Assembly: GCA_018398765.1 (NCBI GenBank)
Contig: JAHBMJ010000074.1
Location: 10,001 to 57,715 of the forward strand
Source of the DNA: Chromera velia
Lineage: Eukaryota > Sar > Chromeraceae
Length of the DNA stretch: 47,715 bases
Direction of reading: 5' to 3'
Shown: piece after piece, positions 973 to 29,959 of the stretch
Layout of the letters: every line of letters starts with the position of its first letter
Position numbering within the stretch: position 1 is the stretch's first letter
Program-made: the position numbers and the translations under genes
The notes under the pieces: model-generated
The model's input: only the letters and a program-made list of their open reading frames with translations
Databases searched by the model: none
Told to the model about the DNA's origin: nothing

Positions 973-2059
973 AGTCAGTTCTAAACACTTTCCGAAAGTG
1001 CAAGTAAGAAAGAGGGGATGTGGGAGCTCGGAAGAAGTCACTCTATCTATCCTATGTTCTGTTCTATTCTCCCTCCCTTCCTTCCTAGCTACTTCGTGCG
1101 AGTGTCGGGAAAGAAACGAACGAAGGCCGCTTTCTGCACGGCATATATGCGGGTGTGCACAGGACAAACACACACACATGTGCATGTATATGTCAAATTC
1201 ACTGTTTGTTTGCTCCTGACGTGCGTTTTGGAATTCCTTGTGCAGAGAAGGGGTTTCTCGGACATGCGTTTACTTTCATACAGAATTTCCTGAATGAAAG
1301 TATTCTGTATGCAAGTAAACGCATAGAATTCCTTGTGCAGAGAAGGGGTTTCTCGGACAAGAAGAAGATTCTGGACAAGTACGAACTCCACGGGATTCCG
1401 AAGGAAGACAAGGAGAAGCTGAAAAAGGCAGTCGCAGCTTATAACGTGAGTGAGTGAGTGAGTGAGGAGTACAGGGAGGGACCGCATGCACCTTCATTCA
1501 TTCATTCATTCGATCATCTATCGACGGACGGATAATTGATGGTGGAACTAACTAGCTGTCTCCATCTATCTCTCATGTGTGCATGCTTGCGCACATGTGC
1601 AAAGCTGCCCTAGCTTCATTTGCTTCCTCCTGATTTATTCAACGTATGAGTGAGCGACTAGATTGATGGATGGATCGAGGGGTGGCCCGATGGTTTATTG
1701 AATCATGCATGCAGTCATTTCACCCGTTTGCCCTCTCAAAGCCTCTCCTGTGGGCTTCTGGGACGTTCAAATCTCCGGGGCTCTGGGAGTCGACTGAGAC
1801 TTTTGTCGTGGTCATCTTTCCAAATCTGGTACGTGCATTGGCCTCCTTCCTCAACTTTTCCTTTTTTCTTCCTTCCTTCCTTCCTTCCTTCCTTCGTTCG
1901 TTCGTTCCTTCCTTCCTTTCCCGTTCCGCCTGCATGCAGTCAAGCAACATTATGTGGTAATTTGTGTGTGGCTGGATTGCCCTCGATCGTGCGCTGATGG
2001 GCGGAAGGAAGGAACTGTTCAGGCAATTCTTCGACGGTGTCCCTTCCACACACACTCGA

Positions 2060-2093
<34 letters not shown>

Positions 2094-3366
2094 TGTCTGT
2101 CTGTCTGTCTGCAGACTTCCCAATCTGCCAAGTTGGCCTCTCGAATCGTCTCCTCCCCTCCACTGAATGGCCAAAGAATTGCGGCGTCGAGGGAAAAAGA
2201 GATTTTGGACTTCGACATCAAGGCGCCGTTGAATAAGGAGGGAGGGAGGTCCGTCTTCTGTCTGTGAATGAGTGAGTGAGTGAGTGAGTGAGGATGGGGG
2301 GGGGGCATTCATTCAGTAAGAATGATCGACGAGTAGCGTTTTGCGTTTTTGTTGCATAATTCTGCTCCTCAAAGGAGCAAAAGTAGTAGGCTGCATCTGC
2401 TTCCATCGGTTGATCGTTTCTTTTGAGCATGCATACCTACACGTGTGCATGGAAGGAACATTTGATCAAGTGATTGATTGCTTGGGTCCAGAAAATACGA
2501 GGCAGCGTTTCTGCAGAAACGAAAACTGCAGGTCAATGCAAATCCTTTCAAGTTGCCACCATCCATACCGTATTCATACTGCTGACTTACAAGTCGGGGA
2601 GTCCTTCGGCGACGTTTTCTGTCTCTCTCTGTCTCTTCTGTTCCTTCCTTTCACTGGCTCGGAATGGCCGGTATGGAGAAGAATCGGGAGATGTTGCACG
2701 ACTGTCTCAATCAAAGACGTGCAGTTTACTTTTTGTCGTCTGCACGCGGTCTCTACAAACACTTCTCTCCTGTCGTGCAGAATAGTCTTTTTTGTCAACT
2801 ATCCAAGAAGTCGCGTACGCATTTCTGAAATGAAAACATCTCAATGTCTTAAAAGGTCATGCGAAATGTCCTGATCGTTCTTCTCAATATACTTTTTGTT
2901 TTGTTTGTTTGTCATTTGCTGCCTGGAAGAAAGCCTCTGTTTGCAGACTGGAACTGTTGGACTATCTGGACTCTCTGAAGGCAAAACGAGAAGAACCCTT
3001 GAGCTCTTACAGAGGATGGAGCTCTGTATCCCATGGTGGGGAAAGAAAGACATGCATTCGGTCACTCACTCATCCATTCATTCATTCTGTCTGTCTGTCT
3101 GTTCTTGGTGAGAGAGAGAGAGAGAGAGGGAGGGGCCCTTCACCCTCTTTACAGAGAGAAAGCCAGGGCGGGCTGCAAAGGCAGAGGAAGTCCTTGCGTA
3201 CATTTGTGTCACTGTCACTGTATGCGTACGTGACAGTTTGTAGGCAAGGGTATGGAAGGGAAGGGAAAGAAAGGAAACGGAATGGAAGGGAAGGTCGTGA
3301 CTGCATGGCTGGGCGTGTGGATGTCTTCACTGCTGCGGTGGCTTGCTTGACAATTTCCTCCATCCT

Positions 3367-3405
<39 letters not shown>

Positions 3406-3691
3406 TCTTTCGGAATTTTTGAGAGGAGAGAGGTAAGGAATTCCCGTACGAAAGGCTCTTTTCTTTTCTCTTCTTTTCTCTTCTTTTGTGTGTAGTACTA
3501 TACGTTGGGAGCGAGGGAGGGAGGGAGGGAGATTCTCTTTCCTTCCTCCCGGCTTTCGTCTGTCTCTGCCTGTGCTTTCGTTCGCTCGTTCGTTCAGATC
3601 ATCCAGCCATGCAGTTACGTGTTTGTAACGCTTTGCTCTTTGCTTTTGTGCGCGTGGAATTTAGAATATGAATGGATGGATGGATGGATGG

Positions 3692-3727
<36 letters not shown>

Positions 3728-4998
3728 ATGGATGGATGCAGGACTGTACTCGATTTTAAATTTTCTGGAGACTTTGACCTTGGTGGACTACTCAATTCTT
3801 ATGAGCACGTTCCGGCTGAGAAGACAGGAAACAAGTCTGTCTGTGTACGTGTCTGTCTGTTTGTCTGTGTGCATGTCTGTCTGTCTGTCTGTCTGTCTAT
3901 CTGTCTGTCTGTCTGTCGCTCTGTCTGTCTGTCTGTCTGTCTGTGTATCCGTCTGTCTGTCTCTCAAGATGAAGGAAAGGAAAGGAAAGGCAAGGGACGG
4001 GAAGGGAAGGGAAGGGAAGGGAAAAGAAAGATAGGGAGGGAGGGAACGCTCCGTCGCTCCTCTGGCCGTCCTTCTTTCTTTCTTGCTTTCTGTCTCTGTG
4101 TCTGTCTGTCTGTCTCTTTTTTTCTCTTCCTCNNNNNNNNNNNNNNNNNNNNNNNNNNNNNNNNNNNNNNNNNNNNNNNNNNNNNNNNNNNNNNNNNNNN
4201 NNNNNNNNNNNNNNNNNNNNNNNNNNNNNNNNNNNNNNNNNNNNNNNNNNNNNNNNNNNNNNNNNNNNNNNNNNNNNNNNNNNNNNNNNNNNNNNNNNNN
4301 NNNNNNNNNNNNNNNNNNNNNNNNNNNNNNNNNNNNNNNNNNNNNNNNNNNNNNNNNNNNNNNNNNNNNNNNNNNNNNNNNNNNNNNNNNNNNNNNNNNN
4401 NNNNNNNNNNNNNNNNNNCCCCCCCCCTCTCTCTCTCACACACACACATACACGCACACTGTCTGCCTGCGTGCGTGCGTGCGTGCGTGCGTGCCTGCCT
4501 GCCTGTCTGTCTGTCTGTCTGTCTGTCTCTCTGTCTGTCTGTCTGTGTATCTTTGTGGAATTCCAGGCTCACGAACACACCTGTGCATGTATGTGTGGGT
4601 GATGCGTTTTTTTTTAATGCAGGAGATTACGAAGATGAAACAGCTGAAGACGCACCTGCAGATCTATTCCGAAAGGTCCGTCCGACACAGGGGTCGCTTT
4701 TTCTTTCATCCATTTTTTCAAGTTCATTTGTCTTTTCATAAAGGCCGGCAGTAGGACAAGGAGCCATGCATACAGGCAGGCAATCAGGCACACGTACAGA
4801 CAAACGTCATGTAAGTTAGTAAGTAAGAGTTTTCGGATGGGAAGTAACGGACAAGAAAAGCAAGCATCCACTGGCAACGCTTTCTGGAATTAATAGTCAA
4901 TGTACATCCACGCAAACAATCAAAAAAGACATTTTATTCGATGCTTCCCTGACACCATCAGCGGTGCATTGGTGCAATGATCCAAGTAAAAGTGGAAT

Positions 4999-5038
<40 letters not shown>

Positions 5039-5366
5039 GAGTGGTTGTGATCGGCGTGAAAAGATGTGTATGTGACTTTGTGTGGTTGCAGTATCTTCCT
5101 CACTGCCTCTTTTCACCCGAGAAGATGGTGAGAATGGAAATTCTCCAAGGGGGCCTCCGTAAATTCACATATGAAAGGTCGGCATGGGAGGGGTCCGGGG
5201 TCCCTCTCTATGGCTGGCTTGCTCTCGCTCTGTGTGTACGTATGAGTACTAATCTTCTGACGCGTGTAAATTTGAGAAATTCAAAACCTATGGTTTTTGT
5301 GATTGCCTGTCTCAGGAAGAAGTTTTTGACCATTCGCAAGAACAAAGAGAGACAGAATTAGGTTGA
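181..5366 (+). CDS. Divergent phosphatidylinositol-phosphate-kinase-like protein, 5' partial, 11 exons
   Basis: Exons that join with unbroken phase are 181-238, 814-905, 1341-1445, 1715-1828, 2115-2248, 2947-3035, 3598-3618, 3742-3834, 4623-4675, 5092-5127 and 5316-5366 (TGA). They give 281 residues, and the 5' end lies outside the window. Features in PIP-kinase order: a glycine-rich loop GDTGSGAAFF (about 15-24) then a candidate ATP lysine in VKIY (K35); HPF (88-90); a hinge-like FVVVIFPNL (115-123); LDFDIKAP (154-161), recalling the family KDLDF element; and [13 protein letters not shown] (212-224), matching the family's FL..L.IMDYSLL element. The DLKGS activation segment is not recognisable, so activity is uncertain. 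The family phosphorylates phosphoinositide head groups at membranes. Introns carry (GTGA)n, (GTCA)n, (CTGT)n and (GGAT)n runs. The third intron holds a hairpin insertion that duplicates the acceptor of exon 1341-1445. The family call is from motif memory, not a search; an extra exon inside the assembly gap cannot be excluded. Confidence 0.6.
1231..1359 (+). mobile_element. Hairpin insertion flanked by a 34-bp duplication of a splice acceptor (locus 1)
   Basis: A perfect 34-bp direct repeat (1231-1264 and 1326-1359) brackets a 61-bp insert (1265-1325). The insert is almost entirely an inverted repeat: 22-base arms (1265-1286 and 1303-1324) with one mismatch. The duplicated block contains the intron end, cttgtgcag, plus 19 exon bases, so two identical acceptors exist (exon starts 1246 and 1341). 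Only the downstream one gives an open exon: reading through the insert meets TGA, and the total added length (95) is not a multiple of three. The insert starts TGCGTTTACTTTCATACAG in the sense direction of the host gene. Confidence 0.85.
4133..4418. other. Assembly gap (run of N)
   Basis: There are 286 undetermined bases between a CT/CTGT-rich stretch and a CT/CA-rich stretch. The gap lies in the intron between exons 3742-3834 and 4623-4675, whose reading phases join directly, so no coding exon needs to be missing. Microsatellites on both sides probably caused the gap. Confidence 0.99.
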
Positions 5367-5399
5367 ACAAAGAAAGGGCTTCTTTGCTGATTGATCAGA

Positions 5400-5463
5400 G
5401 GGGCACCTCTATCTATTGCGTGCGTCATTCAGGGGGGCACCTCTATCTATTACGTGCGTCATT
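5400..5463. repeat. Two-copy 34-bp-period tandem duplication
   Basis: A 30-base block beginning ggggcacctctatct is repeated at 5400-5429 and 5434-5463 with one difference (ttgcg versus ttacg). It lies just after the kinase-like stop codon, in the presumed 3' UTR or intergenic space. Confidence 0.85.
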
Positions 5464-5748
5464 GTGCTCTTTCTCTCTCTTTTCTTTCAGACTACAATGA
5501 GTGCATAGAGACGTCTCTCTCGTGTCGAATTGTCTCGCCTCGTCTTGTTCGTCCGTCGCAAATTAAATCTGCTCCCTGCTTCTGCCCTGACGTTTTTTGA
5601 GAACCGAAGACGAATTGTCGTATTTTTTTTATTCGACTAGAGAATTTGCCTCAAACCTCAACTCTCTTTCTGCTTTGAAAGAGCCAAAAGCCATTCTCCT
5701 CATTTCCCCCATTCTGCCTCCCTCATGCACTGAAAATTGATCAGCAAT

Positions 5749-7447
5749 TCACATCTTCACCCAGTAATACAACTCAGATGGCATTTGGTGAATAGCTTTT
5801 CTGGTTCTGTCGCTGCCCTTGGTTTCCAAATTTTGCCTGCCTGCCTGCAGAAATGTGTTCTGTCTTCCTCTTATTGACTGGCAAAAAGACTGGCAAGCTT
5901 CTCTGTGGGACAGGAGCTCCGATAAAATTAACGGGAACAAATACAGGTACGTGGGTGAACAATGATTACTTGGAGCCTCAGACGCATGGATAGGTGGATG
6001 GATGGACTTATGTGTTGACGACTGCCGGAGAACGTACGTGACAATTTTGTCACAGCCAATGGAAACCTTGGGAAGCTGCATGTGTCATCTGATGCATTCT
6101 CTGTTTGCCATTGACGCACGCAAAATTTGGATGCATCCTTGCGTGCGTCAATGGAAACCTTGGGAAGCTGCATGTGTCATCTGATGCATTCTCTCTTTGC
6201 CATTGACGCACGCAAAATTTGGATACGTCCTTGCGTGCGTCAATGGAAACCTTGGGAAGCTGTATGTGTCATCTGATGCATTCTCTGTTTGCCATTGACG
6301 CACGCAAAATTTGGATGCGTCCTTGCGTGCGTCAATGGAAACCTTGGGAAGCTGCATGTGTCATCTGATGCATTCTCTGTTTGCCATTGACGCACGCAAA
6401 ATTTGGATGCGTCCTTGCGTGCGTCAATGGAAACCTTGGGGGGCTGCATGGGTCATCTGATGCATTCTCTGTTTGCCATTGACGCACGCAAAATTTGGAT
6501 GCGTCCTTGCGTGCGTCAATGGAAACCTTGGGAGGCTGCATGTGTCATCTGATGCATTCTCTGTTTGCCCATCTCACTTTGTGCGTATGCGTGCTCGAAT
6601 ATACGCCTTTTTTGTATTTGCGTGCATGCCTTTTTGCAGCCGAGTTTGTGTGTTTCTCTCTCTGGTTCTCTCGCTCTCCCCATTTCTGTCTCTCTTTTCA
6701 TGTCTATTTGTTGTCACATTTGAGTGAGCAATTGAGTGAGTGAGTAAATGAGCGAGTGAGTGAATGAGTGAGTAACTGAGTGAGTGAGCGAATGATCAAA
6801 TGAATGAGTGAGTGAATGAGTGAGTAACTGAGTGAATGAGTGAGTGATTGAGTGCAGATGTTACCATGTCGACTTCCACAACACTCTCTCTTGTCTAAGG
6901 TCAGCTTCAATCTCCTGCTGCAAAAATGAATGAAGGGTATGGCATTTTTTTTGTTTTTGAAAGTAAAGGCATGCAATCTCCTGCTGCAAAAACGAATGAA
7001 GGGTATGGCCATGTGGATGGACATTTCGAGTTGCATGGGAGGAGGAGGACACTGATCAGCTCATTTGTGCGACTCCTCTCTCTCTTCATCAAAACACAAG
7101 CATCCCATGCTCGTTCATCCTCGCTAAGGAAGACTGGCAGTGCCTGCAGAAAGAAAGTTGGAGAAGTTAAGCCAGATGGATCACTTTTGGATAGAAATTT
7201 CAGTTGAGACATGCAGACGTACTGCAAAGGCCGCATGCATGCAACACTTTGGAAAGTCACTTTGAGTGCTCCCGTGTTTGCCTCCGGTGAATCAATCCTC
7301 CAGTGGAAGAATTCCTTCCTCCCTTTCAAGCAAAGATTCTTTCCTTCCGTGCATGACTCATAAAATTAGGGGTCGTCTTATAGCACGCTTAATTGGTCCC
7401 TCATCCACGATGCCAAACCATTTTTCTTCAAACTCGGCTGGCTGCTC
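5749..7447 (-). CDS. Small multi-exon protein, unknown function (5' end unresolved)
   Basis: The minus-strand exons that join in phase are 7143-7051 (31 codons, begins ALPVFLSEDERAW), 6917-6865 (QEIEADLRQERVLW) and 5836-5749 (ends ELYYWVKM, stop TGA at 5749-5751). An upstream exon starting at 7447 (EQPAEFEEKWFGIVDEG) is clearly coding-like, but its donor is uncertain (gtggat after codon 13 would keep phase). An ATG at 7561-7559 could begin the protein. The donor after 7051 would be gtcctc, which is weak. The last exon needs the third of three tandem ..gcag acceptors to keep phase. The protein is charged, with no signal peptide or membrane span, and I recognise no family. The intron at 6865-5836 contains the 92-bp minisatellite. 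The acceptor of exon 6917-6865 is duplicated by an insertion. The gene is convergent with the kinase-like gene. Confidence 0.5.
6057..6569. repeat. 92-bp minisatellite, about 5.6 copies, each with a perfect hairpin
   Basis: The period is 92 bp: tgcgtgcgtcaatgg recurs at about 6140, 6232, 6324, 6416 and 6508. Each full unit contains attgacgcacgcaa, a roughly 15-base loop, then its exact reverse complement. Copies differ by only a few substitutions. It lies in the last intron of the 5749-7447 gene. Because 92 is not a multiple of three, the series of 69-residue minus-strand ORFs over it is an artefact of the repeat. Confidence 0.95.
6721..6855. repeat. (GTGA/GAAT)n microsatellite
   Basis: This is a degenerate gagtgagtgaatgag tract just inside the intron that follows the donor at 6864 on the minus strand. 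No coding content is visible. Confidence 0.8.
6908..7009 (-). mobile_element. Insertion flanked by a 36-bp duplication of a splice acceptor (locus 2)
   Basis: A 36-bp direct repeat (6908-6943 and 6974-7009, one mismatch) flanks a 30-bp insert (6944-6973). On the minus, gene-sense strand the insert begins CATGCCTTTACTTTC, the same motif that opens the other two insertions; the rest is A-rich and the hairpin partner is missing. The duplicated block contains ttcatttttgcag plus 10 exon bases of the minus-strand gene, giving acceptors with exon starts at 6917 and 6983. The extra length (66 bases) is in frame and stop-free, so either acceptor could be used. Confidence 0.75.
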
Positions 7448-7705
7448 CTGCCGTCGGGTACTAACGAGGACAGACAGACAGACAGACAAACAGGCATGCA
7501 GCCATTGATTCGAGGGAGTCTGCGACTGACTGGTGCTTGACTGGGTGTCCTCATTATTCATTCCACGTCATCACGCTCCCATCTGCATGTCTGTCTATTA
7601 TTCTGCATGGTGCTGCTCCATGTTGAATCCGACCGACTTCTATGTGCACATGGATGGATGGATGGATGGACAGACGGATGGATGGATGGATGGATGCGTT
7701 TGCAG

Positions 7706-9379
7706 ATACTGGAACTCTCCGGTACACGGCAGGTTCGGAACTCGGGTTGGAGCAGCGCAATTGGCGTCAGGGGGGGGCGCCCTGGCCGCGGGTGTGGACA
7801 CCAACCCGGGCACATTCATGCAAGATTGGATGGCGGCCTCGATCTTCTCGTCAGTCAGTCAGCCAGTCAGTCATGCAATCATTAATTCTGACAGCCAGCC
7901 AGCGAGTCATCCAATTAGTCAGTCGGTCAGTCTCAGTCAGAGTCGGCAGAGTTAGTTGATGTTTCTTCGCTCGCTGTCCCTACATGCACACGCGCGTTCA
8001 TGCTTACAGCTGGGCGCTGACGTCACACTCGAGCAAGCCAGTGAGTGCATGTGGCTTCCTTTCTTCCGGCCTTCGTGGGTCTTGCAGGTCCGACGCCCGT
8101 GTGACCTGCCACAAGTACATGCGGGACATCGACTCATTCAAGCACGACAAGGTCGGTGGTGGGTTGGCACGCTGATCGAAGGATAAACGACGGAAGGAAA
8201 GAAACAAAGTCACAATGGAAAGCAGAGAAGAAAAAGAAGAAGAAGGAAGAGAACGAGGAAGGAAGAAAGGAAGGAAGGAAGGAAGGAAGGAACGAAGGAA
8301 GGATCGGAGGAAAGAAAAAAGGAAAGAATGGAAGGAAGGGAGGAAAGAAGGAAGGAGGGAAGGAGGGAGGTAGGGAAAACCTAAAGACAAGGGACGGGTG
8401 AACAATGTTAAGACCTGAACGAGAAAGTACGTACACACACAACATACACACACAGAGACACACGCGCGCACACACACACACACTGACACGCACGGACACA
8501 CACAGGGAGAGAGAGAGAGAGAGAGAGAGAAGAAGCTGCCTAGTGTGTGAGAGAAGACTGAAGAACAGAAACGAAGGATCGCAATGTGCTTACACCAGCC
8601 CTTCAGGATTGAATATGCTTTCAACTGGTTGCAGTCTTTCAGTTTCCGAAAAGGAACTGCTTTTGAATTTGCGTGCGCAACCCCACTACGCTCTGCCTTG
8701 GCAAGCGGCGACTCGGCAATCTGCACACTGGAGTCAGTCAGTCACTTCTTAAGCATGCAAACCAACACTTTTACTCCTCAGCTTTCATGCTTGCTTGCGC
8801 GTTCGTTTGACTTATCGAATCGCGGCTTGCCCGTTCCTTCCGAGGCATGCAATGCAAAACACTTTCCGCAGACTCGATTCTCTTTTGTCCTTTTTGTTTC
8901 TGTTTTTGCGATTTTGTTCCCTCGTTTTGAATTTCTTGGGGTGTGTCGAAAGGCAAGTGTGTGCTTCTGGCCTGCGCCTGAGCGAGCCTGTCTGTTTATC
9001 TGTCTGTCCGACTATTCTTCTGTCTTCCTTCTCTGTTTCAATCCTTCTTTTTCGATCAGCAAATGGTTTTCTGTGACGATACACGCATCATTTACAGAAT
9101 AGAAGATTTTGTTTTTGCGTGCTGGTACTCTCTCTCTCTCTCACTCTCTCTCTCTGTGTGTGTGTAAGAACGTTCCTGGATTCCGTTTCTTTCTGTCTGT
9201 CTGTCTGTCTGTCTGTCTTTCTTTCTTTCTTTCTTTCTCCGACCATGAATGAATCGTGCAGCTCTGAGAGACAAAAAAAGGCCCGAATGAAGTACGTGAC
9301 CCCCTTCTGGTTCTTGCCTGAAAAAAACTCCCTTAACTTCAAATGGCCGACTTGTCCCAGAAAGGAAAATCAAAGGTAG
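7706..9379 (+). CDS. Six-exon protein of unknown function, 5' partial model
   Basis: Exons with continuous phase are 7706-7853, 8010-8044, 8088-8151, 8599-8736, 9060-9124 and 9262-9379 (stop TAG 9377-9379), giving about 189 residues. Exon 1 needs two bases from an upstream exon I could not identify. Coding-like peptides include [67 protein letters not shown] and [13 protein letters not shown]. There is no clear signal peptide or membrane span. I recognise no family; the alternating aromatic strands could suit a beta-rich lipid-binding-type fold, but that is only an impression. Two donors are GTCAGT followed by more GTCA units. The donor of exon 8010-8044 (gtgcat) was chosen over gtgagt four bases earlier to keep phase. 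Confidence 0.5.
8250..8380 (+). repeat. Polypurine (GGAA)n tract in intron
   Basis: Degenerate ggaaggaaggaag repeats lie between exons 8088-8151 and 8599-8736. They are followed by CA and GA dinucleotide runs to about 8530. The long minus-strand serine/leucine ORF across this tract is a composition artefact. Confidence 0.85.
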
Positions 9380-10784
9380 CAAAGGGGAGGGAGGCGAGGA
9401 CCCTCCGGGCAGGCAGCCAACCGAAGGCAGGGGGGGAGGGGGGGAGGGAGGGAGGGAGACGGAAGATGGGAAGGAAGAAAGGAAGGAAGGAAGGAGAAAA
9501 AAGAGACAGAGGCACAAATGAGTTCACAGAGAGCGGAGAGCTGGTTGGTCTGTCCTTTCATCAAAAAAAGAAAAGAAAAGAGGACCGAATGAAGACATAA
9601 ATTACACCATCTAGAGAGTGAGTGAATATGCGGGGAGAGAAACAGTCAAGTTGGGAGCTAGGGAAGAGGGGAAAAGACAAACGAGGAAACTTAAAGGTAG
9701 GAAAGAAGAATTCTGTTCCCATTGCAGCAGATTGAGGAGAGGAGAGTGATTCCACTCTCTCCACTGGGGGGGGGAGGGGGCGGGGAATGTAGTGAAAATG
9801 ACACAACTCCAAAGGGACCGAAGTTTAAGAGACAAAAATGTTTTCTGACACTCACCGCCTTTTTGTCCTCCCTTTCTTCCCATTTTGGCAACGTTGCATG
9901 CATGTGAGATCCCTCGACCCAAGTTGGTTTTAATAAATTGGCTTGATGGATGAATCAAGTGGGTGGCGCGAGAAGGGTCAGAGAGAAAGCTGAGCAGGAA
10001 GGGGAGGAGAAAGACGCGAAAAGTATGAAACGAGAAGTAAAGAAAGGCAAAAAGAAGAGGGGACAAATTGATTAGACAAATCAATATAAAGTTTCAATCA
10101 GAAAAGACACACAAAGGTGGACGATGGGAGAGACTACTTCAAAAGGTCTTCACGGAATTTTGGACTAAGAAAGGGTACGGGGGAGAAAAGAGTCAGTTGG
10201 TCATGAAGTAAGTTAAGCAAGTGCGACATGATCGAATTTTGTCTGTCTGTCTGTCCGTGCATGCATTTATGCATGCATCTTTGCACGTGAAGGGAGGAAG
10301 GCTTGATAGAATTAATGCCGTCAGTCGATCAACATGCAAGGAGGGAAGGAAGGAAGGAAGGAAGGAACGGGGAAGCGCCCGGCCGGCCCTTCCCTCGTAG
10401 GACTGCAGCTAGTCCGGGGAGGGAGACAATTAAGCAGAGAGACAAAAAGATGACAGGCAGGCACACAGATGCATGGGGAGAAGAAATTTAAGTTTTTTCA
10501 TCCAAAGAAAGTTTGAATTAAGTGCGGCATCATGCAGTCTCAAGGATAATTAAAGGATGGGGGGGGGAAGGGGTGGGGGCAAGAGAGACGAAAACAGATA
10601 GAGGGGAAAGAGAGAGGATAGAACATCTGAAAAATGTGAGGAATGAGAAATGCACTGGTAGAAACAGACAGGCAGAAAGACAGACCTCAGGTGCATCCAG
10701 ATTGACAAAACCAAGAATCAACGAAAAACAAAAAGAGACAGAGGGCTGCACGGGTGGAAGAGGAGGGAGAATGGGAGACACACA

Positions 10785-10836
<52 letters not shown>

Positions 10837-10880
10837 AAGAAAGCCATCCGTCATCTAAAAAAGTCCATGCCGATTCATGA
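9380..10880. other. Gene-free, strongly purine-rich plus strand
   Basis: About 1.5 kb is dominated by G and A on the plus strand (gggaggga, ggaaggaag and gagagaga blocks) and ends in CA and GA runs at about 10781-10840. Minus-strand ORFs here are serine/leucine/proline low-complexity products without splice logic or family features. I see no gene. Confidence 0.6.
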
Positions 10881-11399
10881 TTTGAATCCAATACATGGTT
10901 AGTCACTAATAATCACTCACTGTCACCCATTGTGGTCCTTCTTTCCTGTCGAAGAACGAACCTTTTTCTTTTGCCTTCGGACTGTATATGTTCAAGTTTT
11001 CTCAATGAAGGGAAAATACTTGGTCACTGTGTCATTCCAGATTCACCTCAGGCTCAGGCATGACTGTGTAACTTTAATGCGAAGTTTGTTAATACAATAT
11101 GTGAATCCAGTATTCAATCCACTCAAACTGCATATTTTTGGTAGTTGTTGAATGAAATTGCCTGTAAGCTAAAACGGTGAAAAAATGTTAAAAATATACT
11201 GTTTTGAAAAAGATAACTCCCCTTACTCCCCAAGACTGTAGCATACCGTAGTTCAAACTGCGTGGTACGTAAATTAATGATTTTTCCTAGGATTTTTCTT
11301 CTAGTTTGGCCTCCAGTCCCTGGATATAAATTCAATTAGATGAAAATCCTGTATCTTACTTGCAAAAAACAATATGTAATATGTATATTTAAATTTAAT

Positions 11400-19055: not shown

Positions 19056-19124
19056 CCAGATGGTGATGATGATGTATATCAGACTATGTATGTACATGTG
19101 TGTCTGTACGCGTATGTGTGTTGC

Positions 19125-19144
19125 GTGCGTGCGTGCGTGCGTGC

Positions 19145-19191
<47 letters not shown>

Positions 19192-19310
19192 GGTCGGTGT
19201 GTCTGTGTGTGTCTCTCTGTGTGTATGTACGTGCGTGCGTGCGTCTGTGTGTGTGCTGGTGCTGTGAGTGAGTGAGTGAAGGAGTGAGTGAGTGAGTGAG
19301 TGAAGGTCTT
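19125..19310. repeat. (GCGT)n (CTGT)n (GTGA)n microsatellites
   Basis: Successive tetranucleotide runs lie downstream of the P-loop kinase-like gene. The cysteine/valine/serine ORFs over them are artefacts. Confidence 0.95.
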
Positions 19311-19532
19311 GCTGGGATTCGCTAGGTTTTATGTTTTGGGACTTACTGAGCTTACTGCAATTCAAAATTCGAATGAGTGCGAGTGCGCGGATGTCTTGTG
19401 GGCGGTCGCTGCCCCTGCTCACAGCAGCGGGTCCGAAAAACATTTTTCCGCATTTTTCCGTGTGAAATGTTTTGGTGCATACTCTTGTTCCTGTATTGAT
19501 ACAAGCAGAGCATCATTCACGTGGACATTTGA

Positions 19533-20345: not shown

Positions 20346-20399
20346 CTCGGCACAATTAACACAACAGAAAGCGTCTCTTCAGTGAAATTGAAGGCAGTT

Positions 20400-21250
20400 G
20401 AGCCACCTAACGTGTCATAGGGCTTCAGAAGCCCAGAGTAGAGTCAGTCGACGCTGAATGGGTTGACTGTATACGTGTAGAATCGACAGAAGAGATCGAA
20501 TTCATGCAAGCTACGTAGTACAGCTATTAAAGGTCATGCAGCTGTCCATGCATCTGTACGTCGGCGCGCACGATGCGCAGATTTACGCATATTGCGAGTG
20601 GCCCAGAAAAGCGAATTGAAGGTCACGGGACTTCTGAAAGTGCCATCTACACGTGCTTTCCGGGGCCAAAACAACGATAAACGCCTTGAAATGAAAGTCA
20701 CTCTCATGCAGAGCCTCGCTTCTGATTCCAACTGTCCAGGAGTTCCCAAGAATAAGAATGGTACCTCTTCATTCCGAATACTGCACCCTGCGTGCTCTAC
20801 TGTTTCTGTCTATGTGCCTCACCGTTTTCTCCACTCATATTCCGAGGAACAACGCGAAGGTCAGACAACACATGCATGCATTGAGATCTGAAAACGGCAT
20901 TTCTTCTGTATCCTCTTTCCAGAAGATCCTTTCGGTTCATCTGTCCATTTGAGTGTGTCCCTTTGTGTTCGATTCTGTAGTCGATGTGTCGGTGTATCGG
21001 GTACAGATCGGTACCGTCGTAACTTGAAAGTCCGGCGTCCAGGTTTGTCTGAACGTCTATTCTTTTTGAGTATACATGCAGATTGACGACGCCACCGTCT
21101 GAAAACTCAGCCTTTCTTCTGTCCTGTGCTTTACGCCTGTTTCTTTTTCTTTCATTCTGACTGGCTCTGTTTCCATCCGACCCTCTCGATCAGGAAACTT
21201 TTGTCTGATGGCCAGAAAATGCGCGTGCCTGTTCGTATGTGTCAATTAAT
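20400..21250. other. Upstream intergenic region, possible small exons
   Basis: The composition is balanced, without microsatellites. A plus-strand frame at 20758-20952 begins with a hydrophobic stretch (LRALLFLSMCLTVFSTHI) that could pass as a signal peptide. No splice-consistent gene could be built. The kinase promoter probably lies just above 20345. Confidence 0.3.
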
Positions 21251-21522
21251 TCAATACTGCTGATATATGCGTACCATAAACAGTTGTGTAGCCATCTCTC
21301 TGGGAGTATGTGGGAAGTTTGGACAAAATACAAATGTGAGAACAGAGAGGAAGCTTGCGGGAAGTGTGGGCTGTGTCTGCTTTGGTTCCACTAGAGTCAC
21401 ACCGTTCACCATCGTTCTTCTGGACAACATTGTAGGTTGAGCTGTAACAGCGATGCACCAAGTACATGTGTCTGCCTGCCTGTCCGTATATCAATGCATG
21501 CATGCAACAAGTATGTATGTAT

Positions 21523-21582
21523 GTACGTCTCTCTCTCTCTCTCTCTGTGTGTATGTGTGTGTGAGTGTACGTGTGTGTGTGA

Positions 21583-21625
<43 letters not shown>

Positions 21626-21640
21626 TGTGTGCATGTACGC

Positions 21641-21687
<47 letters not shown>

Positions 21688-21692
21688 AGAGA
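21523..21692. repeat. (CT)n (GT)n (GA)n compound microsatellite
   Basis: Long GT and GTGA runs are flanked by CT and GA runs. The cysteine/valine ORFs across it are artefacts. AT-rich DNA without a gene follows to about 22600, including a poly-A run at about 22297-22314. Confidence 0.95.
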
Positions 21693-22619
21693 CTCTTAAC
21701 CTACGTGCGGGTCTACGTGGTTTTACGTTAAATTGCTTTTACCAGGATATCATAAAGCTGTGATGACTGTGTTGAAGACATAAGTCAAAAATCTTGTAAA
21801 AAAACGACTAAAAACGTTGTTAGAAAGTCAATAATTTAAAAAAAATGCCGCTTAAAAATCTAAACTTGAAAAACGATAAAAATTGCACTCAAATTTATCG
21901 TGTATGCTTATATATAACCGTTACTCAGCCTTAAAGAGCATACCTAGGAGCACGCAATAGATAAAATCATAGAAAGATCCGAACTTTCCCTTTTTTTGAG
22001 AACATACCTAGTAATGTACTGGATCTGTAAAATAAAACTACTGCCTAGGCTACTGTACCGTTTTCTGTTCCACTTTATTCAAAGCTGTTAAAGAACGCTA
22101 ATGAACTTAGTAATGAGCAGAAGTCTGTCTATGTCTATGCCGCCTAACACAGAGAAAAAAAATAATTTAAGCCCCGGCCCGTTCTCACTTAATTTTTTCT
22201 TTTTTTTACCTGAAGATGTTAGGTGACAAACAACTGTTGTTCAAGTATTGCATAAGTGTTGTTTTGGTGTTGCACAAATGTTGCTTAAGTGTTGCAAAAA
22301 AAAAAAAAAAAAAATAATTTAAGCCAATTCTGGTTTAGTCTTTTTTTTTTTATGATACGTCTAGAAGTCTGTCTGTATAATTCTGTTTATTGCTCTCTGG
22401 ACGGCCGATTAGACTCTGTGAAAGGTCTCATGATGACTGTTATCGGCAGGATCTCAAAAGCTCCTCTACCTCACAGACTATACCTGTGCATCTGTGAGGA
22501 AGGACGCATACCGATCGAAGCATAGGAATCATAACCTCCCTGAACCTAAGTACCACTCTAGGTACCACTTGAAAAAATATAATCAAGATGATCTCTATCT
22601 ATGGCATCATTTTTCAAGA

Positions 22620-22672
22620 GACCGTCCACGCTTGCGGCGTAGACGGTCAAGACACCGAACTGTTGGGTGTCA
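22620..22672. other. Two adjacent perfect or near-perfect hairpins
   Basis: Hairpin 1 (22620-22648) pairs gaccgtc..acgc with gcgt..gacggtc across a 5-base loop. Hairpin 2 (about 22651-22672) pairs gacacc with ggtgtc. They lie in AT-rich DNA downstream of possible minus-strand exons. They could be a structured RNA, a terminator-like 3' element or chance. Confidence 0.35.
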
Positions 22673-22817
22673 TTGCGTCAGACTCTTATTGATATAAGCT
22701 ACGCTGCTCTACCAATTCCATTGGATCGATCGCGGTAATTAGAAATCCAATTGCCGATTGCAAGCTCCCCGGACTTGGTCCGCGCGGCTTGGAGGGCTCT
22801 TAAATCTTCTGCCTCCC

Positions 22818-22939
22818 TCATTCGTTTGGCCTCATGGTCCGTGCGAACGTCGCATACTGGCAAGCGAGGTGCACACTTGCATCGCAATTCTTGCATCGCT
22901 CTGACATGCTCTGAGCTTCCATCCATATGCCTGCATGAC
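22818..22939 (-). CDS. Possible terminal exon with CxxC..HxxxC cluster
   Basis: The exon would start after gtcatgcag (cag complement near 22940-22942) and stop with TGA at 22818. The peptide includes SERCKNCDASVHLACQYAT, a CxxC-x4-HxxxC pattern suggestive of a small zinc-binding fragment. Its phase fits the leftover base of candidate exon 23318-23104. A second frame (to 22699; REAEDLRALQAARTKSGEL) is also open and natural-looking, so the frame is ambiguous. Confidence 0.3.
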
Positions 22940-23103
22940 CTTCGCAATTAAAAACTCCGTCGAGGTCCTCCCTCTCCTGTCGCAAACCTCCCGGAGCGTT
23001 CAAGTGTCTACGTAGCTAGCCGCATGGCTGACTACGGGGACCAAACACGGATATTAAGATCTCGCCAATGAATGAAACTCCCTGCCCGCCGGCTAGGGCA
23101 TAC

Positions 23104-23318
23104 CGTTTTGCGGCTGCTCTTCTGGTTGTCCTCCGTGCTTGGCAGACTGAGGAGGAGAAGCCGCCTCCGCGTGAGGGGGATCCACCGCCTTTCCGCCCTC
23201 CGGTGTTTCCCTTGTTATCGCCCCCCCCCCTGCCCCCTCTGGTGTGAGTACCGCTTTGTTGTGCCCAGCTTGGCCGCCCTGCTGCTGTTGAGTCTGGGCG
23301 GAGTATGGAGGGGCAGGC
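23104..23318 (-). CDS. Possible downstream exon of the large HSA-domain gene
   Basis: An acceptor cattgcag precedes 23318 and a donor gtatgc follows 23104. The 215 bases encode PAPPYSAQTQQQQGGQAG and then HAEAASPPQSAKHGGQPEEQ, the same Q/G/P-rich style as the C-terminus of the large gene. It would join in phase if the last large exon used the donor gtcagt (complement of 23840-23845) instead of running to the TGA at 23825. It may be an alternative C-terminus or a separate gene. Confidence 0.4.
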
Positions 23319-23399
23319 CTGCAATGAATGAAATCAATCACGCAGCACGAATCAGCAAATGAAAAAAGAGATCCAGGCAGGAAGAGCCAGCCAGCCAGC

Positions 23400-23530
23400 C
23401 AGACGAGTGGGTGGGTGGGTGGGTGGGTGAGTGGGCACCCAATGGATCCATCCATCCATCCATCCACGTGTCTTTCTTTCTATCTGTATGTCAACCAGTC
23501 GAGCGATTGATCGATCGATCGTTCTTCATT
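23400..23530. repeat. (GTGG)n, (ATCC)n and (GATC)n microsatellites
   Basis: Short tetranucleotide runs lie between the two candidate exons. They are typical of the introns in this window. Confidence 0.85.
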
Positions 23531-23824
23531 CATTGATTCGCCCACCCACTTTGTGGAGCTCTGTCTATCTCTTCAGTCACCGGGGAGAAAACAAGGGAGA
23601 GTCAGAAAAGCTTGCACAACTTTCTGAAAGAAGGGAGGGGGGAGAGAGAGCTTCAGGGAGAGCTGATGCATGCATGAAGAACCTGCTGGCAGATTGAAAG
23701 AAAAAGAAAAAAGATGGACTCGGCCAGATGTATGCGCACAGATAGACAGACAGCTGTACTGCAAGCGTTTTCCCTCCCTGAAAAAAAAGTATGCAGAATT
23801 AACAGCAGGGTTTCATTCATTTAA

Positions 23825-26694
23825 TCAGTGTACAACCCCCCCCACTGACTCTGCAGAGGCGTGTGAGGACGTGCTCATCACTCCTCCCCCCCCAGCCTGG
23901 GGCTGTTGGGGAGATGAGGCGGGAGGACCCTCTGGCAGGGGAGATGACGAGGCCGCCGGGGTTGGAGGAAGGGCAGTCGCAGAGGAGAAAGTCGCGGCTG
24001 CTCCTCCCGCTCCCCCCGCACCACCCACTGCTGCTGCTGCTGATGGGCGCTGTGCCGATAATCCTCTGATTGCAGCCATGACTGCTGCAGGCGAGCGCGT
24101 CGGGGGAGCGCCTGTGCCTGTGCCTGTGCCGACGGGAAAACCTCCAAGACTCGGCTGACGCTGACGCTGCTGTGGCTGGAGAGACCCAAGCAGACCTCCC
24201 GGTGCAGACTGCAACGGCAAAGTTTGGACCACACCTCCCGGTCCACTCGCTCCTGCAGTGCCCCCGCCACCTTCTTGGGCGGGAACAGACTGAGAAGACG
24301 CAGTCTGTTGCTGTTGCTGCTGTTGCTGCTGACGCATTCTTTGCTGTTGCTGATACGCCTGCATGGAGGGGGGATTGGGTATCGTTCTGTTAATAGTTGG
24401 AGAGGCAGAGGGAGAACTCACAACCGCAATTCCTCCCTGGGGCCGTGCCGCTGCGGCCTGTTGCTGCTGCTGGAGAAGGGCAGCTCGTCGAGCCACGTGG
24501 TCCTGCACGACTGGGGGGGGAATGGGAGTGGGGGGAGAAGAAGAAGAGACAACGGCTGCTGGAGAGACACCGGACGCCAACGGGGGCACTGATTCAGAAG
24601 GGGGCGAGGCGGCAGGTCTGCCCGGAGCAATCGCTCCTCCCTTCACGAGGGGGTTGGTTGTCTGAGCAACCATGGATGCTGCTGCTGCACTGGTTGCAGG
24701 GTTCGGCCCTGCGGCAGCTGCGTGTGTGTTGGTGGGTGGTGAGGATTCTGGTCCTGTTCCTGCACCCGCGAGGGATGCAGAGGCTGAGACGGGGGCAGCA
24801 GTCGCACCATTCCCTTGCGCTCCTCCTCCGAAAGGGACAACATTCGATGTCGAAGCAGAAGCAGAAGTTGAAGACGAAGAAGGTAACAACGAGGGAGTGC
24901 CCCTCCCACCCGTGGGTCCGACTGCAGTGGGATGTTGGGGGGTAATCTGCACAGGCGGTCTAGGAGGGTGTGTTGTTGCACCCGGCTGTGCCTGTGTGTG
25001 TTGTGGAGGCCTGTGTGCGTGCGTGGGGGGGCTTTGAGGTGAGGAAGAATTCGGAGGCTGGCCTGCCACCCCTCCACCAACTAACGAAGACGTTCGAATT
25101 TGCCCCCCTTTGGAGGCATCAGCGTGCGGCGGCTGCTGTTGGTTGTTGGGGGGAGGGTGTCCCTGGGCTGCCCTCGGCTGGTACCTATGGGGGCCTGGCG
25201 CTGGGGCGTGTCCTGAGGACCCCCCAGGCGGCGATGTCGTTGGATTGTTCCCATGGGAGTGGGGAGGCATAGGAGAGGAGGCTTTGGGTCCTGCGGGCGT
25301 GATCAGTGTGGGGCGGGGAATTGAGTGGGCCTGCTGCTGCGGTCGTGGAGACGGAGAAGGGCTCGGAGACGGCATTTGCATGGGGGGCTGCTGATTCCCT
25401 CCAGTTGCAGAAGCAGTCGTCACAGTGGCTGCTGCAGAGACCCCCGGCATGCCCCCAGTTTGAGGGTGGGGGTGGGCCTGCATGGCCCCTCCGGGGGTAT
25501 GCCCCTGGGGAACCTGAAGGGACCTTGCGGAGGAGGGAGGGGCAGCCGTTCCCGTTGTCTGTCCCTGTCCAGCAGGCTGTTGCCCTGCGGTGGCGTTTGG
25601 CTGCTGGGTCGAGGGAGCCGCCTGGCTTTGGCTTCCGCCGGGGCCTCCAGGTTGACCCGGGGGGCCGGCTGCTGCAGGCCGCCCTGGAAAGCTGGGGCCC
25701 CTTGCGCTGCTGTGGGGGGGACGGGTCTGCTGGGCCCCGGGACCGGCAGCAGAGGTGGACGGGCTGGGGAGCCGGGGCCCCGTTCCCCCCATTGCAGATG
25801 AGCGCGCGGACGCACCACGGGGTGAGGGGGGTCTCGCGGTCCCTTGAGGAAATTTTGCGTGATGGCCAAGCGCAATCTGATTTGTCGACTGCTGTTGCTG
25901 CCGATTCTGCATTGCCAACATAGAGGGCGACACAGGACGACTGACTGAAGAGGCGGGGGGGACCTGGCCAGGCAGGTGGGGCTGAGGTGCAGCAGGCGAG
26001 GAAGGGGCCCTGATTTGCACGTTGAATCTCGGCTGCTGCTGCTGGGTGGTGGCGGTACTGGTGGCTGTTGCCGCGTGTGTGGCGGGTCCTCCACCTCCGC
26101 CTCCCCCTGCAGCAGCAGCAGTCGAAGGAGAAGGCCCAACGAGGGTCGGGTTGGGGTTCTTCTTCAGATCGGCGAGAGTCTTGGACTGCTGCCTTTGGGG
26201 ACCGCTTTGAGACCCCATGCCTTTGTGGCCCTGTGTGTGAGTGTGAGGGGGCGCCTGCTGACCGGAAATCGAAGAGAGAGAATGCGCCTGGGCTCCAGCA
26301 GAAGAGGCCACGGATTGCGCACCCCCATGCACCCCCGTCTGATGCTGCTGATGAGCATAGCCCCCCCGCTGTGAATGTGAGTGGGGGCCTGGGCCTGCAC
26401 CGGTGTGCTGTTGTGAAGAATGAGCCTGCTGCTGCTGCTGCTGCAAAGGGTTGATGCCCCCCTGCACCTGAGAGGTCAGATGGTAGTGAGTGCCCCCTCG
26501 ACCCCCGTGGAGTGACGCCCCTGCTGCCGCCGCCGCCTTTGATTGTTGATGGTCCCATGCGTTTCTTCGGGTGCTTGCCAACTGCTCATCCCTGGCCCGC
26601 TCGTATCGGCGCCGCAAGTCCTCTTTCGCTTCGAGCTCAACGGCTGCGCGCATGAAATCCTCCGCGTGACGCCAGGTCCAGGCGGGTCGACCTC
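23825..26694 (-). CDS. Last large exon of the HSA-domain gene: Q/P/G/S/A-rich C-terminus
   Basis: The acceptor is the complement of gcatgcag before 26694; the stop is TGA at 23825-23827, giving 955 residues. It opens with a charged helix (WRHAEDFMRAAVELEAKEDL, then RRRYERARDEQLAS), then turns to polar low complexity with Q runs, poly-Gly, poly-Ala, PHxH and SPSPSP segments. Such composition is typical of disordered transcription or chromatin regulators. Antisense ORFs of up to about 205 residues over it are shadows. A donor gtcagt just before the stop could connect to exon 23318-23104. Confidence 0.7.
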
Positions 26695-27015
26695 CTGCAT
26701 GCATGCATGCATGCGTGGGTGGGTACTTCCATGACAATCGATCGATCATTCCCTGAAGTGGAGTGGAGTAGAGTGCGTCAGGTCAGTGAGGGAGTGAGAG
26801 GCATGCAGAGGAAGAGAATGAAGGTGGATGAAGGAAAGGAACAAAGCAGTGCATCAGAACCCACAAATCCAAGGAGAAGGAAAATGCGGACAGCCAATAT
26901 TAGGCACGCATCTTTTATTGAACTAAGGGGGGCAAAGAGACAGGGACAAGATTCAGCGCTCTTTTTCGAGGTTTGACGCCTCTTTTTGCTTTTCCAACAC
27001 TACAACGTCCTCGTG

Positions 27016-27086
<71 letters not shown>

Positions 27087-28805
27087 CCAACAGGAGGAAA
27101 AAAAGAAGATGCAGTTCTAACGCACCCACCCAACAAAGAATTGAGACAAGAACGAGACATACTTTAGCCACACGGGAAGACAAAGAACCGCACCGCATTG
27201 AAACAGTCTCTGAGGGAGAGAGACAAATTTTAAACGGACAAACACACCAACCGCTGTGAGGCTGCTCTCTGTCGAGGGGAGCGTCATTTGGGCCGAACAA
27301 ATTCTTGAAATAAGAGGTCCGCGCGGTATCCGGAAGCATCCGGAAGAAGTAGTCATGCTCCAGGGCAAAAACCTCATGAGGCTCCCAGCTCCGAGTGACC
27401 TTCCAGCTCGCCTGTCTGCACGCACGCACGCAGCATTGACATGCAGACACTTCGCGGAAAGGATACGATATTCCTTCATACAGACAGCCGCCGTTTGGTG
27501 CCGCCATTATTGCGGCGAGCCTTTGTTGTTTGCATTTGAGCGCTCGGACGGGCTGCCTGCCCGCCGCTTTCTGAAGGGATCACACGGCATGCCTGCAAAG
27601 AAATTGGATCACCCTCCTGACCACCCTCCCTCCCTGAAACGGTTTTTCTCAACAGCACTTTGGGCAAATTTCGACGACCAACAGACTCAAGATTGGCAAA
27701 GAGCGCGCACGAAAGAGAGAGAGAAAGAGAGAGGGAGGGGGGAAGGAGAGAGAGAGAGAGGAGGCACCGCCCCATCCGGTGAAATCACAGGCACCTTCAT
27801 CTTTGTAGGGCGCCCGCTCACTCACTCTCATACTCACACACCGGCGCAAAGACAGCCAGCTCAACAAACAGAGAAAAGAAAAGAATTGTTGTGGACGCAG
27901 AAAAGAAACGATGCGGAGAGGAAAGCGTCTGCATGGAAGCTCAAACTCTCAATTCTGCTGGCTGGACCGGCAGATGAACTGACTAACTGACTGACTGACG
28001 GATATCGTTCGGGGAACATATCCTTCCTTTCCCGCAGGACCATCGCCTGAGGCAAGAAGGGCACAAGCACAGGAGGAGGGCTCTTCCTCTTCCCTCCTCT
28101 CGACTTCGGAGAGGAAGAGGAAGAGGAACCGAATCCCATATGGAACCCCACGGGTCCAGCTGCCCCCCCGGGGAGTGAAAGGAAGAGAGGGGGACTTGAG
28201 GACATTCGGTCCCTGTCGACCTGTCGGGACAGCGCCCCTGCCCGCATCAGTTGCACGTAGCGCTCTTGGTCCGTGTGGTAGTAAGAGGGGCTCACCCATT
28301 CTAGCATCACGCACCCTGCAGAGAGAAAGAGAAAGAGAGGGAAGTGAGAGAAGAGGTAGGGAAGAATTCAATCGCTACGCAGACAGAGAGGGAGAGAGAG
28401 AGAGAGCGGTGAATCTGTCAAACAGACCCCCTCCCCTTTTCCTTTCTTTCTTTCTTTCTTTCCATTTCGAATCTTCACGCCCCCCCCCAAAAAAAGAGTC
28501 AGACAGAGTTCGTTTTTTTCATTCGGGCTCTTTCTTTTTGTGGAAAAGGGAGAGGCGCCAGGTAAGCATCTCATTTTCTTTCTTTCTTTCTCAAACACCC
28601 CGCTGGAGAGGGGAGGAGAGAGGCTTCATTCATTCAGGTTGCAGACTCAGTCAGGCCGGTGCGCCCTCTCCCAGAGGATTCATTCGATCATTCATTCGAC
28701 CTTTTCCCGTGCATCCACTCTCACTCTATGTCTGTCTGTCTGTGCATCTTTCCTTCGTTCTCCTCTCCCCTCTGTCTTTTCTCTCCCTCTCTTCTCTCCC
28801 TCTCT

Positions 28806-28847
<42 letters not shown>

Positions 28848-29959
28848 CGTGAGTGAGTGAGTGTGTGCGTGTGTGTGTGAGTGTGTGTGAGTGTCTTGTC
28901 TTGTCCAGCTGACGGACCAGGAGCACGGCATCTGACTGCCCACGTCACCCCTCCAGAACTCAGGCTGCCTCCTGCCTCACTCTCTGTCCCAGCAGTATGT
29001 TGAGATTGAGAGGAATCCCGCCTCCCTCCCCCCCGTCTCCCCCATGCACCGTCACGACCACTCGTCATCGAACCCCCAACCCCAACCCCAGATGCGCTTC
29101 GAGACACACCACCACCCTGCCCCCCTCCGGCAGAGGCAGAGGCAGAGGAGGCAGAGCCCATCCCCGGGATGGCCATGACCTCCAATTTCGTCCAGAACTT
29201 CTTCGAGGGCGCCATCAGGGAGGGGTCAGGAAGAACAGAGAGATGCTCGTTCTGCATACAGAATTTAATACATAAATTTAATACAAATAATACATTAATA
29301 ATTCTGTATGAAAGTAAATGCATGAACTTCCTCGAGGGCGCCATCAGGGAGGGGTCAGGAAGAACAGAGAGATGCTCATTCTGCAGACCGACAGACAGAC
29401 AGATAGACACAGACTATGTGACTTCTCTTTTTCTTTTTTTTTTCTTCTTCCTTTTGAAACGAAAGCAAAGCAAGACAAACCATCCAGACAATCAAAAAAA
29501 GCACCGACAATTAGACACGCGGAAGAGGGCCCGAAGGAGACACAAATAAGCGACCCTCCCTTGCGTCTGCTCCCCCGATGAGATTTCACGAGATTTCTTC
29601 AAGTCAAACGCTGCTTCAAAAAAGAGAAACAGTAAAAAGAAAAGAAACACAAAAACACAACCATAAGACAAACAAGAGACAAGCAGGCACCGTCAAGTCA
29701 GAGAGGGGTGGGTAGCGGTGCGGTATGGGGCTCCTCCTAGCGGAGGGGTGTCCTCTTCTGCCCTCCATTTTTGCTTTCGTGGTGGAGGGAGAAGCCCTCT
29801 CTCTCAGCGGTAACGATGGACAGGCTATATGCTTCTTCTTCTCTCTCCTTCCTTCATGTGAACGATAGACAGACTGACAGACAGACAGACAGCCAGCCAA
29901 ACAAAACAACAACAGACAAAACCATCCTCCCTCCCTCTGTCTCTCTCTCTTTTTCTCTT

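What the first reader, a model, noticed from the sequence alone, without database searches (positions are those of the whole stretch)
1231..29385. A family of short insertions that land on splice acceptors and duplicate them
Three insertions in three different genes (1231-1359, 6908-7009, 29195-29385) share four traits seen directly: a common 5' motif ATGCnTTTACTTTC in the sense of the host gene; same orientation as the host gene; flanking direct duplications of 34, 36 and 62 bp; and a duplicated block that always includes the 3' splice site plus the first 10-57 exon bases. Splicing to the downstream copy makes the insert intronic, so coding is untouched. Loci 1 and 3 also share ATACAGAATT and its inverted partner. 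The duplications are far longer than ordinary transposon target-site duplications. That suggests staggered-break repair with filler, reverse-spliced or reverse-transcribed RNA, or an introner-like element specialised for acceptors. I know of no described element with this exact architecture.
Basis: partly seen in the sequence, partly recalled or inferred. Interest (0 to 1): 0.9.

Follow-up and report, generated by a model that had tools for sequence, protein, structure and literature searches.

The report
Hairpin insertions that duplicate splice sites
In this unnamed eukaryote, short hairpin-shaped DNA pieces have inserted at the edges of exons and copied the splice site on arrival, so splicing appears able to remove them and the genes appear to stay intact.

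Summary
The three insertions are real, with 34/34, 35/36 and 60/62 bp flanking duplications. They belong to a genome-wide family: one 13-mer of it occurs 1,650 times in 178 Mb, against 3 for the reversed pattern.

The insert is an imperfect palindrome built from one ~39-44-nt unit, T, on the left and its reverse complement on the right, pieced together differently at each site read. In 58 single insertions the duplication is 16-71 bp (median 36) and the insert 30-136 bp.

With a gene finder trained on these loci, 42 of 68 duplications hold one predicted splice site (control intervals 11.7%): 25 acceptors and 17 donors, so 'acceptors only' fails. 'Same strand as the gene' fails too: 19 same, 18 opposite, 5 both. 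Of 14 copies lacking the exact motif, 11 hold a junction (control 17.5%). A sequence-unrelated family, T2, shows the same layout.

Best reading: a non-autonomous hairpin element, probably copied from RNA at both ends of a widely staggered cut; the RNA step is inferred. Caveats: no RNA-seq, no empty allele, organism unnamed, splice signal weak in a 20-locus hold-out.

The parts
1231..1264 (+). Locus 1, upstream copy of the 34-bp target duplication; holds an acceptor (exon would start at 1246)
1265..1325 (+). Locus 1, 61-bp T palindrome (sense T then antisense T)
1326..1359 (+). Locus 1, downstream copy; its acceptor (exon from 1341) is the one that leaves the insert intronic
   Evidence: copy use in native loci
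6908..6943 (-). Locus 2, left copy of the 36-bp duplication; minus-strand acceptor-like site, no junction called by the gene model
6944..6973 (-). Locus 2, 30-bp insert, one antisense T arm (T1-15) plus a T-rich stretch
6974..7009 (-). Locus 2, right copy of the duplication
29195..29256 (-). Locus 3, left copy of the 62-bp duplication; minus-strand acceptor with 57 exonic and 5 intronic bases
29257..29323 (-). Locus 3, 67-bp insert (T14-24 sense, T1-24 antisense)
29324..29385 (-). Locus 3, right copy of the duplication
6109..6521 (.). Second family (T2): five-unit array, period 92 bp, of a different palindrome alternating with about 45 bp of target
5416..5464 (-). T2-like single arms (2 mismatches each) next to a ~22-bp direct repeat, read by eye

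Best explanation
These are copies of a short, non-autonomous, palindromic mobile element. SHOWN: each insert is made of segments of one ~39-44-nt unit (T), sense on the left and antisense on the right, mostly anchored at T1 on the outside and broken off at varying points inside. It is flanked by a 16-71 bp duplication of the target, and in most sites read that block contains one predicted exon-intron junction, donor or acceptor. With two copies of the junction, the gene model splices so that the insert lies in the intron (downstream acceptor copy, upstream donor copy). INFERRED: the element arrives by a two-nick insertion whose nicks lie tens of bases apart; the target 3' ends pair with the ATGC end of a hairpin RNA and are extended on it by a reverse transcriptase that slips and stops early (target-primed copying from both ends, or self-priming), and the two products are joined inside. 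ALSO INFERRED: the crowding at junctions comes from a preference for exon edges, or from exon-biased insertion followed by selection that keeps the insertions which duplicate a splice site.
For: Segment structure of T in 68 inserts. Long, variable duplications, 16-71 bp in 58 single insertions, which a fixed-stagger transposase does not give (recalled). No two of 58 inserts identical, best pair 81%, while duplications average 95.9% identity. Both arms of an insert share rare letters: 36 against 12.9 +- 3.3 in shuffles, maximum 26 of 10,000 (61 inserts). Target and T share at least 4 end bases at 5 of 61 ends, 0.24 expected. One-armed inserts. Junctions in 42 of 68 blocks against 11.7%, matrices alone 24 of 58 against 7.1%, 11 of 14 in copies without the exact motif against 17.5%. 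Expected splice copy used in 35 of 36. Pfam families cross 6 of 8 validly tested junctions above cut-off. T2 family with the same layout. Precedents for both-end priming and palindromes: L1 twin and dual priming (PMC2837659, passages), Penelope self-priming (PMC3846280, passages).
Against: No RNA of T, no reverse transcriptase partner and no long copy with T ends was found. 38 of 61 ends share no base with the target, 31 of them with extra bases before T. Shared rare letters in both arms are also what a DNA element with terminal inverted repeats would show. The splice signal was weak in 20 loci fetched after training (8 of 20 against 20% at cut-off 5, p 0.035; 4 of 20 against 11% at cut-off 6, not significant). 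22 of 68 blocks are wholly non-coding by the model. The gene model was trained on the same loci. L1 and Penelope duplications in the passages seen are short (8-10 bp for Penelope).
Confidence: 0.5

Rival explanations
1. A terminal-inverted-repeat DNA transposon (MITE-like) with an unusually wide and variable stagger. The complete element is an ~80-bp near-perfect palindrome; the hairpin is unstable in replication, so each copy was re-arranged inside after landing.
For: Sense-left, antisense-right arms; T running straight into its complement in L091 and L094; both arms share rare letters; introners are often DNA transposons (PMC9860276).
Against: Duplications of 16-71 bp, where known introner ones are 3-9 bp; inserts differ strongly although duplications are young; one-armed inserts and back-jumps along T.
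Confidence: 0.27
2. No dedicated element: breaks at exon edges are repaired by an error-prone polymerase (polymerase-theta-like) that fills staggered ends and copies in a favourite template.
For: Mosaic, slipped, microhomology-joined inserts and simple-repeat fillers.
Against: The same template in nearly all cases read, with sub-variants shared by both arms, and about a thousand sites by extrapolation. Among 17 long direct-repeat pairs listed elsewhere in 299 kb, 6 hold T words and 11 do not; most of the 11 are minisatellites and one is T2.
Confidence: 0.13
3. Junction placement is a pure selection filter: insertion is uniform, and only copies that do no harm survive.
For: Fully coding blocks are rare: 3 of 68 against 27% in controls.
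Against: Harmless non-coding blocks are also too few: 22 of 68 against 60%. Uniform insertion with loss of exonic copies would give about 16% junction blocks (11.7 against 60.1 in the controls); 62% were seen. An exon-biased version of the filter is not excluded.
Confidence: 0.05
4. Classical introners: each insertion made a new intron.
For: Palindrome, duplication, splice sites near; several blocks contain AGGT.
Against: With insert and one copy removed, the gene model still places an intron at 42 of 68 sites, so the intron seems older than the insert.
Confidence: 0.04
5. Assembly artefact or ordinary minisatellite.
For: 10 of 68 sites are tandem arrays, and simple repeats abound.
Against: 58 of 68 are single insertions, the copies differ by about 4% on average, and the same unit sits in unrelated targets at dozens of genes.
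Confidence: 0.01

Closest known systems
Introners (Gozashti et al. 2022, PMC9860276: abstract, sections 7 and 23, and a term search)
   Same: Short non-autonomous elements, some with terminal inverted repeats, intronic in the host gene, with splice sites recruited from the duplicated target in some families.
   Different: There the insertion makes a new intron and the described duplications are 3-9 bp; here the intron seems to pre-exist and the duplication is 16-71 bp with the whole splice site in it.
Amoebophrya introner elements (PMC7789003, passages)
   Same: Hairpin-forming inverted repeats, direct repeats at intron edges, repeated families without internal genes.
   Different: Direct repeats of 3-5 nt at non-canonical introns; here long repeats and canonical GT-AG junctions.
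L1 twin and dual priming (PMC2837659, passages)
   Same: Head-to-head inverted products flanked by target duplications, truncated inside, microhomology at the outer junctions.
   Different: Long autonomous element with poly(A); none of that seen here.
Penelope-like elements (PMC3846280, passages)
   Same: Inverted copies with palindromes at the join, read there as self-priming; partial tandems.
   Different: Duplications of 8-10 bp in the passages seen; no Penelope gene was linked to T.
Direct repeats near intron borders (Rogers and Bendich 2025, PMC11782384, abstract only)
   Same: Direct repeats at intron ends read as insertion scars.
   Different: 4-30 bp, mean 11.4, flanking introns; not a dispersed repeat inserted at an existing junction.

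Membership tests
Introner | Insertion creates a new intron in an exon | tested here: inconclusive
   Gene model sees an intron in the empty site at 42 of 68, against the feature; no empty allele or RNA was available
Introner | Repeated sequence family located in introns of many genes | tested here: met
   395 exact motif copies; insert outside coding sequence in native predictions of 36 single insertions, one with 3% coding
MITE / TIR DNA transposon | Terminal inverted repeats | tested here: met
   Sense and antisense T arms in most inserts, one-armed exceptions
MITE / TIR DNA transposon | Short target duplication of fixed length | tested here: not met
   16-71 bp, quartiles 27, 36, 43, in 58 insertions
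MITE / TIR DNA transposon | Copies alike end to end; autonomous partner with the same ends | tested here: not met
   No identical pair among 58, median pairwise identity 56%. Partner: none seen in the loci read; no whole-genome search for one was possible
Target-primed retroposon (non-LTR or Penelope type) | Variable-length target duplication | tested here: met
Target-primed retroposon (non-LTR or Penelope type) | Copies anchored at one end of the template and truncated at the other | tested here: met
   Arms mostly start at T1 and stop at varying points; some start at T4-T5
Target-primed retroposon (non-LTR or Penelope type) | RNA intermediate and partner reverse transcriptase | not testable with these tools
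   No RNA data; no partner searched for by protein family
   25 acceptors and 17 donors; 19 same, 18 opposite, 5 both

The most novel reading that the evidence does not exclude
A new class of mobile element, with at least two sequence-unrelated families (T and T2) in one genome: an ~40-nt unit is copied from a hairpin RNA onto both ends of a widely staggered cut at exon-intron junctions, perhaps guided by splicing factors or the nascent transcript, so that an insertion brings a spare splice site with it and makes itself removable by splicing.
Probability: 0.3. Interest if true: 0.93.

Novelty: new variant of a known kind. Interest (0 to 1): 0.78.

Why it matters
If right, it is a way for a mobile element to land on an exon edge, normally a damaging place, without harm: the duplication carries the splice site with it. 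It would lengthen introns from their ends, supply tandem spare acceptors and donors (raw material for alternative splicing), and give intron-evolution work a case of insertion tied to splice sites that leaves the intron count unchanged. The abundance (about 1,000 sites for one exact 13-mer, my extrapolation) and the mostly near-identical duplications make it directly testable with strains and RNA-seq.

Tried and rejected
Tried without result. The T core TTTACTTTCATACAGAATTC in viral contigs: 0 matches. A spliceosomal-RNA origin for T, suggested by recalled U5 and U6 motifs: U5 genes exist, and the one searched locus (L075) has no T-like stretch; U6 genes were located but not compared. Rfam on the window: 0 matches. 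A long copy: one + then - pair 862 bp apart proved to be separate insertions. Uniform placement of acceptors within the block was not rejected (KS p 0.09); for donors it was (p 2e-5). Literature searches found the introner papers and, in the listings shown, nothing with this layout: open-access library only.

Rows dropped. The C585 array was listed but not read. L043 was left out for lack of a duplication above score 13. The 10 sites with more than one unit were left out of the length, matrix-only and identity tests (68 down to 58); they were kept, with distorted lengths for L040 and L049. One search used 14 of the extra clusters; left out were arrays and leftovers of sites already counted (L026, L037 at 2131-2245, L040, L049, L050, L059) and L043. 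One search used the 36 single insertions with one called junction.
Full report
WHAT WAS CHECKED. The window is bases 10,001-57,715 of contig C74 of an unnamed eukaryotic genome of 177.8 Mb. The end motif occurs 395 times, against 3 for the reversed pattern. I read the loci behind the first 100 listed places, except the C585 array: 65 loci plus the window. After collapsing arrays there were 68 distinct insertions with a flanking direct repeat, and one locus without one above threshold (L043).

ANATOMY. In 58 single insertions the duplication is 16-71 bp (quartiles 27, 36, 43; mean identity 95.9%, 15 of 58 identical) and the insert 30-136 bp (median 63.5). The inserts break up into segments of one unit T = ATGC[A/G/C]TTTACTTTCATACAGAATTCTTTTTCAGGGAGCG. 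Segments lie in sense on the left and in antisense on the right, mostly starting at T1 on the outside, with back-jumps inside an arm and different break points from site to site; some inserts have one arm only, some arms start at T4-T5, and L058 has a sense segment after an antisense one. A search for the inner part of T found 46 exact copies (reversed control 0). I read 20 of those places' loci; all 20 are insertions between direct repeats with alignment score 13 or more, and in L091 and L094 T runs straight into its own complement through GAGCGCTC, so the largest form approaches an ~80-bp palindrome. L077 holds several antisense units in a row. No two of 58 inserts are identical; the best pair is 81% alike. 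Yet the two arms of one insert share rare letters far more than shuffled arms do (36 against 12.9 +- 3.3). My reading: one source per insertion, re-arranged on the way in or soon after.

PLACEMENT. I had no annotation, so I trained a small gene model (codon-position Markov model plus donor and acceptor matrices) on 67 sequences, 294 kb, after removing inserts and one copy of the block. It converged on acceptor TGCAG and donor GTNNGT. In the empty sites 42 of 68 blocks contain one called splice site (25 acceptors, 17 donors), against 11.7% of same-length intervals from the same loci (binomial p 1e-22). Fully coding blocks are 3 of 68 (control 27%), fully non-coding ones 22 of 68 (control 60%), and 1 is mixed without a junction. 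With the matrices alone the figures are 24 of 58 against 7.1%. Because these loci trained the model, two other sets matter. First, 14 T copies found by similarity without the exact motif, lying in the same stretches: all 14 have a 24-63 bp duplication and 11 hold a called junction, against 17.5%; their sequences were in the training set but were not chosen for junctions. Second, 20 loci of 251-501 bp fetched after training: matrices alone gave 8 of 20 against 20% at cut-off 5 (p 0.035), but 4 of 20 against 11% at cut-off 6, 2 of 20 against 6% at cut-off 7 and 13 of 20 against 49% at cut-off 3, none of these three significant. Those loci are short for the full model; I count that test as weak support at best.

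ARE THE JUNCTIONS REAL? I scanned predicted spliced pieces against Pfam. Of 8 letter-exact pieces, 6 have a family match above cut-off running across the junction: UCH in L022, Pkinase in L027 and L058, Epimerase in L021, TRP in L013, AAA in L073. L037 is crossed only by WD40-type profiles below cut-off. For L038 (FAD_binding_2, two stretches) the listed best stretch does not reach the junction. On native sequence, with both copies present, the model keeps the insert outside coding sequence in the 36 single insertions tested (one with 3% coding) and uses the expected copy in 35: 28 alone, 7 together with the other copy; in L033 it used the other copy alone. Donor blocks reach a median 30 bases into the exon and 8 into the intron; acceptor blocks 19 and 13. 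The smallest intronic part is 4 bases for acceptors and 2 for donors. Donor blocks are skewed towards the exon (KS p 2e-5); acceptor blocks are not significantly so (p 0.09).

A SECOND FAMILY. The window also holds a five-unit array of another palindrome, CATTGACGCACGCAA...TTGCGTGCGTCAATG, alternating with about 45 bp of target (6109-6521). The 15-mer has 55 exact copies in the genome, ten of them in this array; reversed control 0. In L097 one stretch carries a T insert at an acceptor, a T2 array at a donor and a T insert at the next donor, by eye and by the model's exon calls. Two unrelated sequences with one layout suggest a mechanism that reads structure rather than sequence.

MECHANISM. 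Shown: variable, long duplications; arms anchored at T1 and cut short inside; reiteration; shared end bases beyond chance at a minority of ends (at least 4 bases at 5 of 61, 0.24 expected; none at 38 of 61). These resemble target-primed copying with priming from both ends, as proposed for L1 (PMC2837659, passages), and the self-priming inferred for Penelope elements (PMC3846280, passages). Inferred: that the template is RNA, that a reverse transcriptase does it, and that the nicks are set tens of bases apart. A DNA transposon with an odd cut and an unstable palindrome remains a serious rival. Why junctions? Selection against coding insertions alone does not explain the shortage of wholly non-coding copies; exon-biased insertion plus selection, or direct targeting to junctions, both fit, and the survivors alone cannot tell them apart.

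ABUNDANCE. TTTCATACAGAAT occurs 1,650 times (control 3). The first 100 listed places form about 60 clusters by my hand count, which extrapolates to about 1,000 sites for this one exact word; diverged copies come on top.

LIMITS. No reads, RNA or second strain; organism unnamed; only part of the copies read; the gene model is home-made and partly circular; one set gave a weak result. Literature was searched only in an open-access library.

Noticed in passing
window 6109-6521 and 5416-5464; L017, L063, L097: A second, sequence-unrelated palindrome family (T2) with the same layout; in L063 it forms an array of period about 61 bp.
   Followed up: partly
L010 (2587 and 2820); L097: Two T insertions at the donor and the acceptor of the same predicted intron (L010), and three insertions of two families at successive junctions of one stretch (L097).
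   Followed up: partly
L042, L092; contigs C585, C90, C2694, C3748: Block plus insert amplified in tandem, for example five units of 103 bp in L042 and nine motif hits about 75 bp apart in C585.
   Followed up: no
acceptors of the fetched loci: The bases before the acceptor show a period of about four (T at every second place alternating in strength), as if introns end in CTGC-type simple repeats.
   Followed up: no
L039:331-1812: An unrelated, irregular long-unit repeat array without T words.
   Followed up: no
window, within about 3791-4751: A run of undetermined or masked bases (reads X in translation).
   Followed up: no
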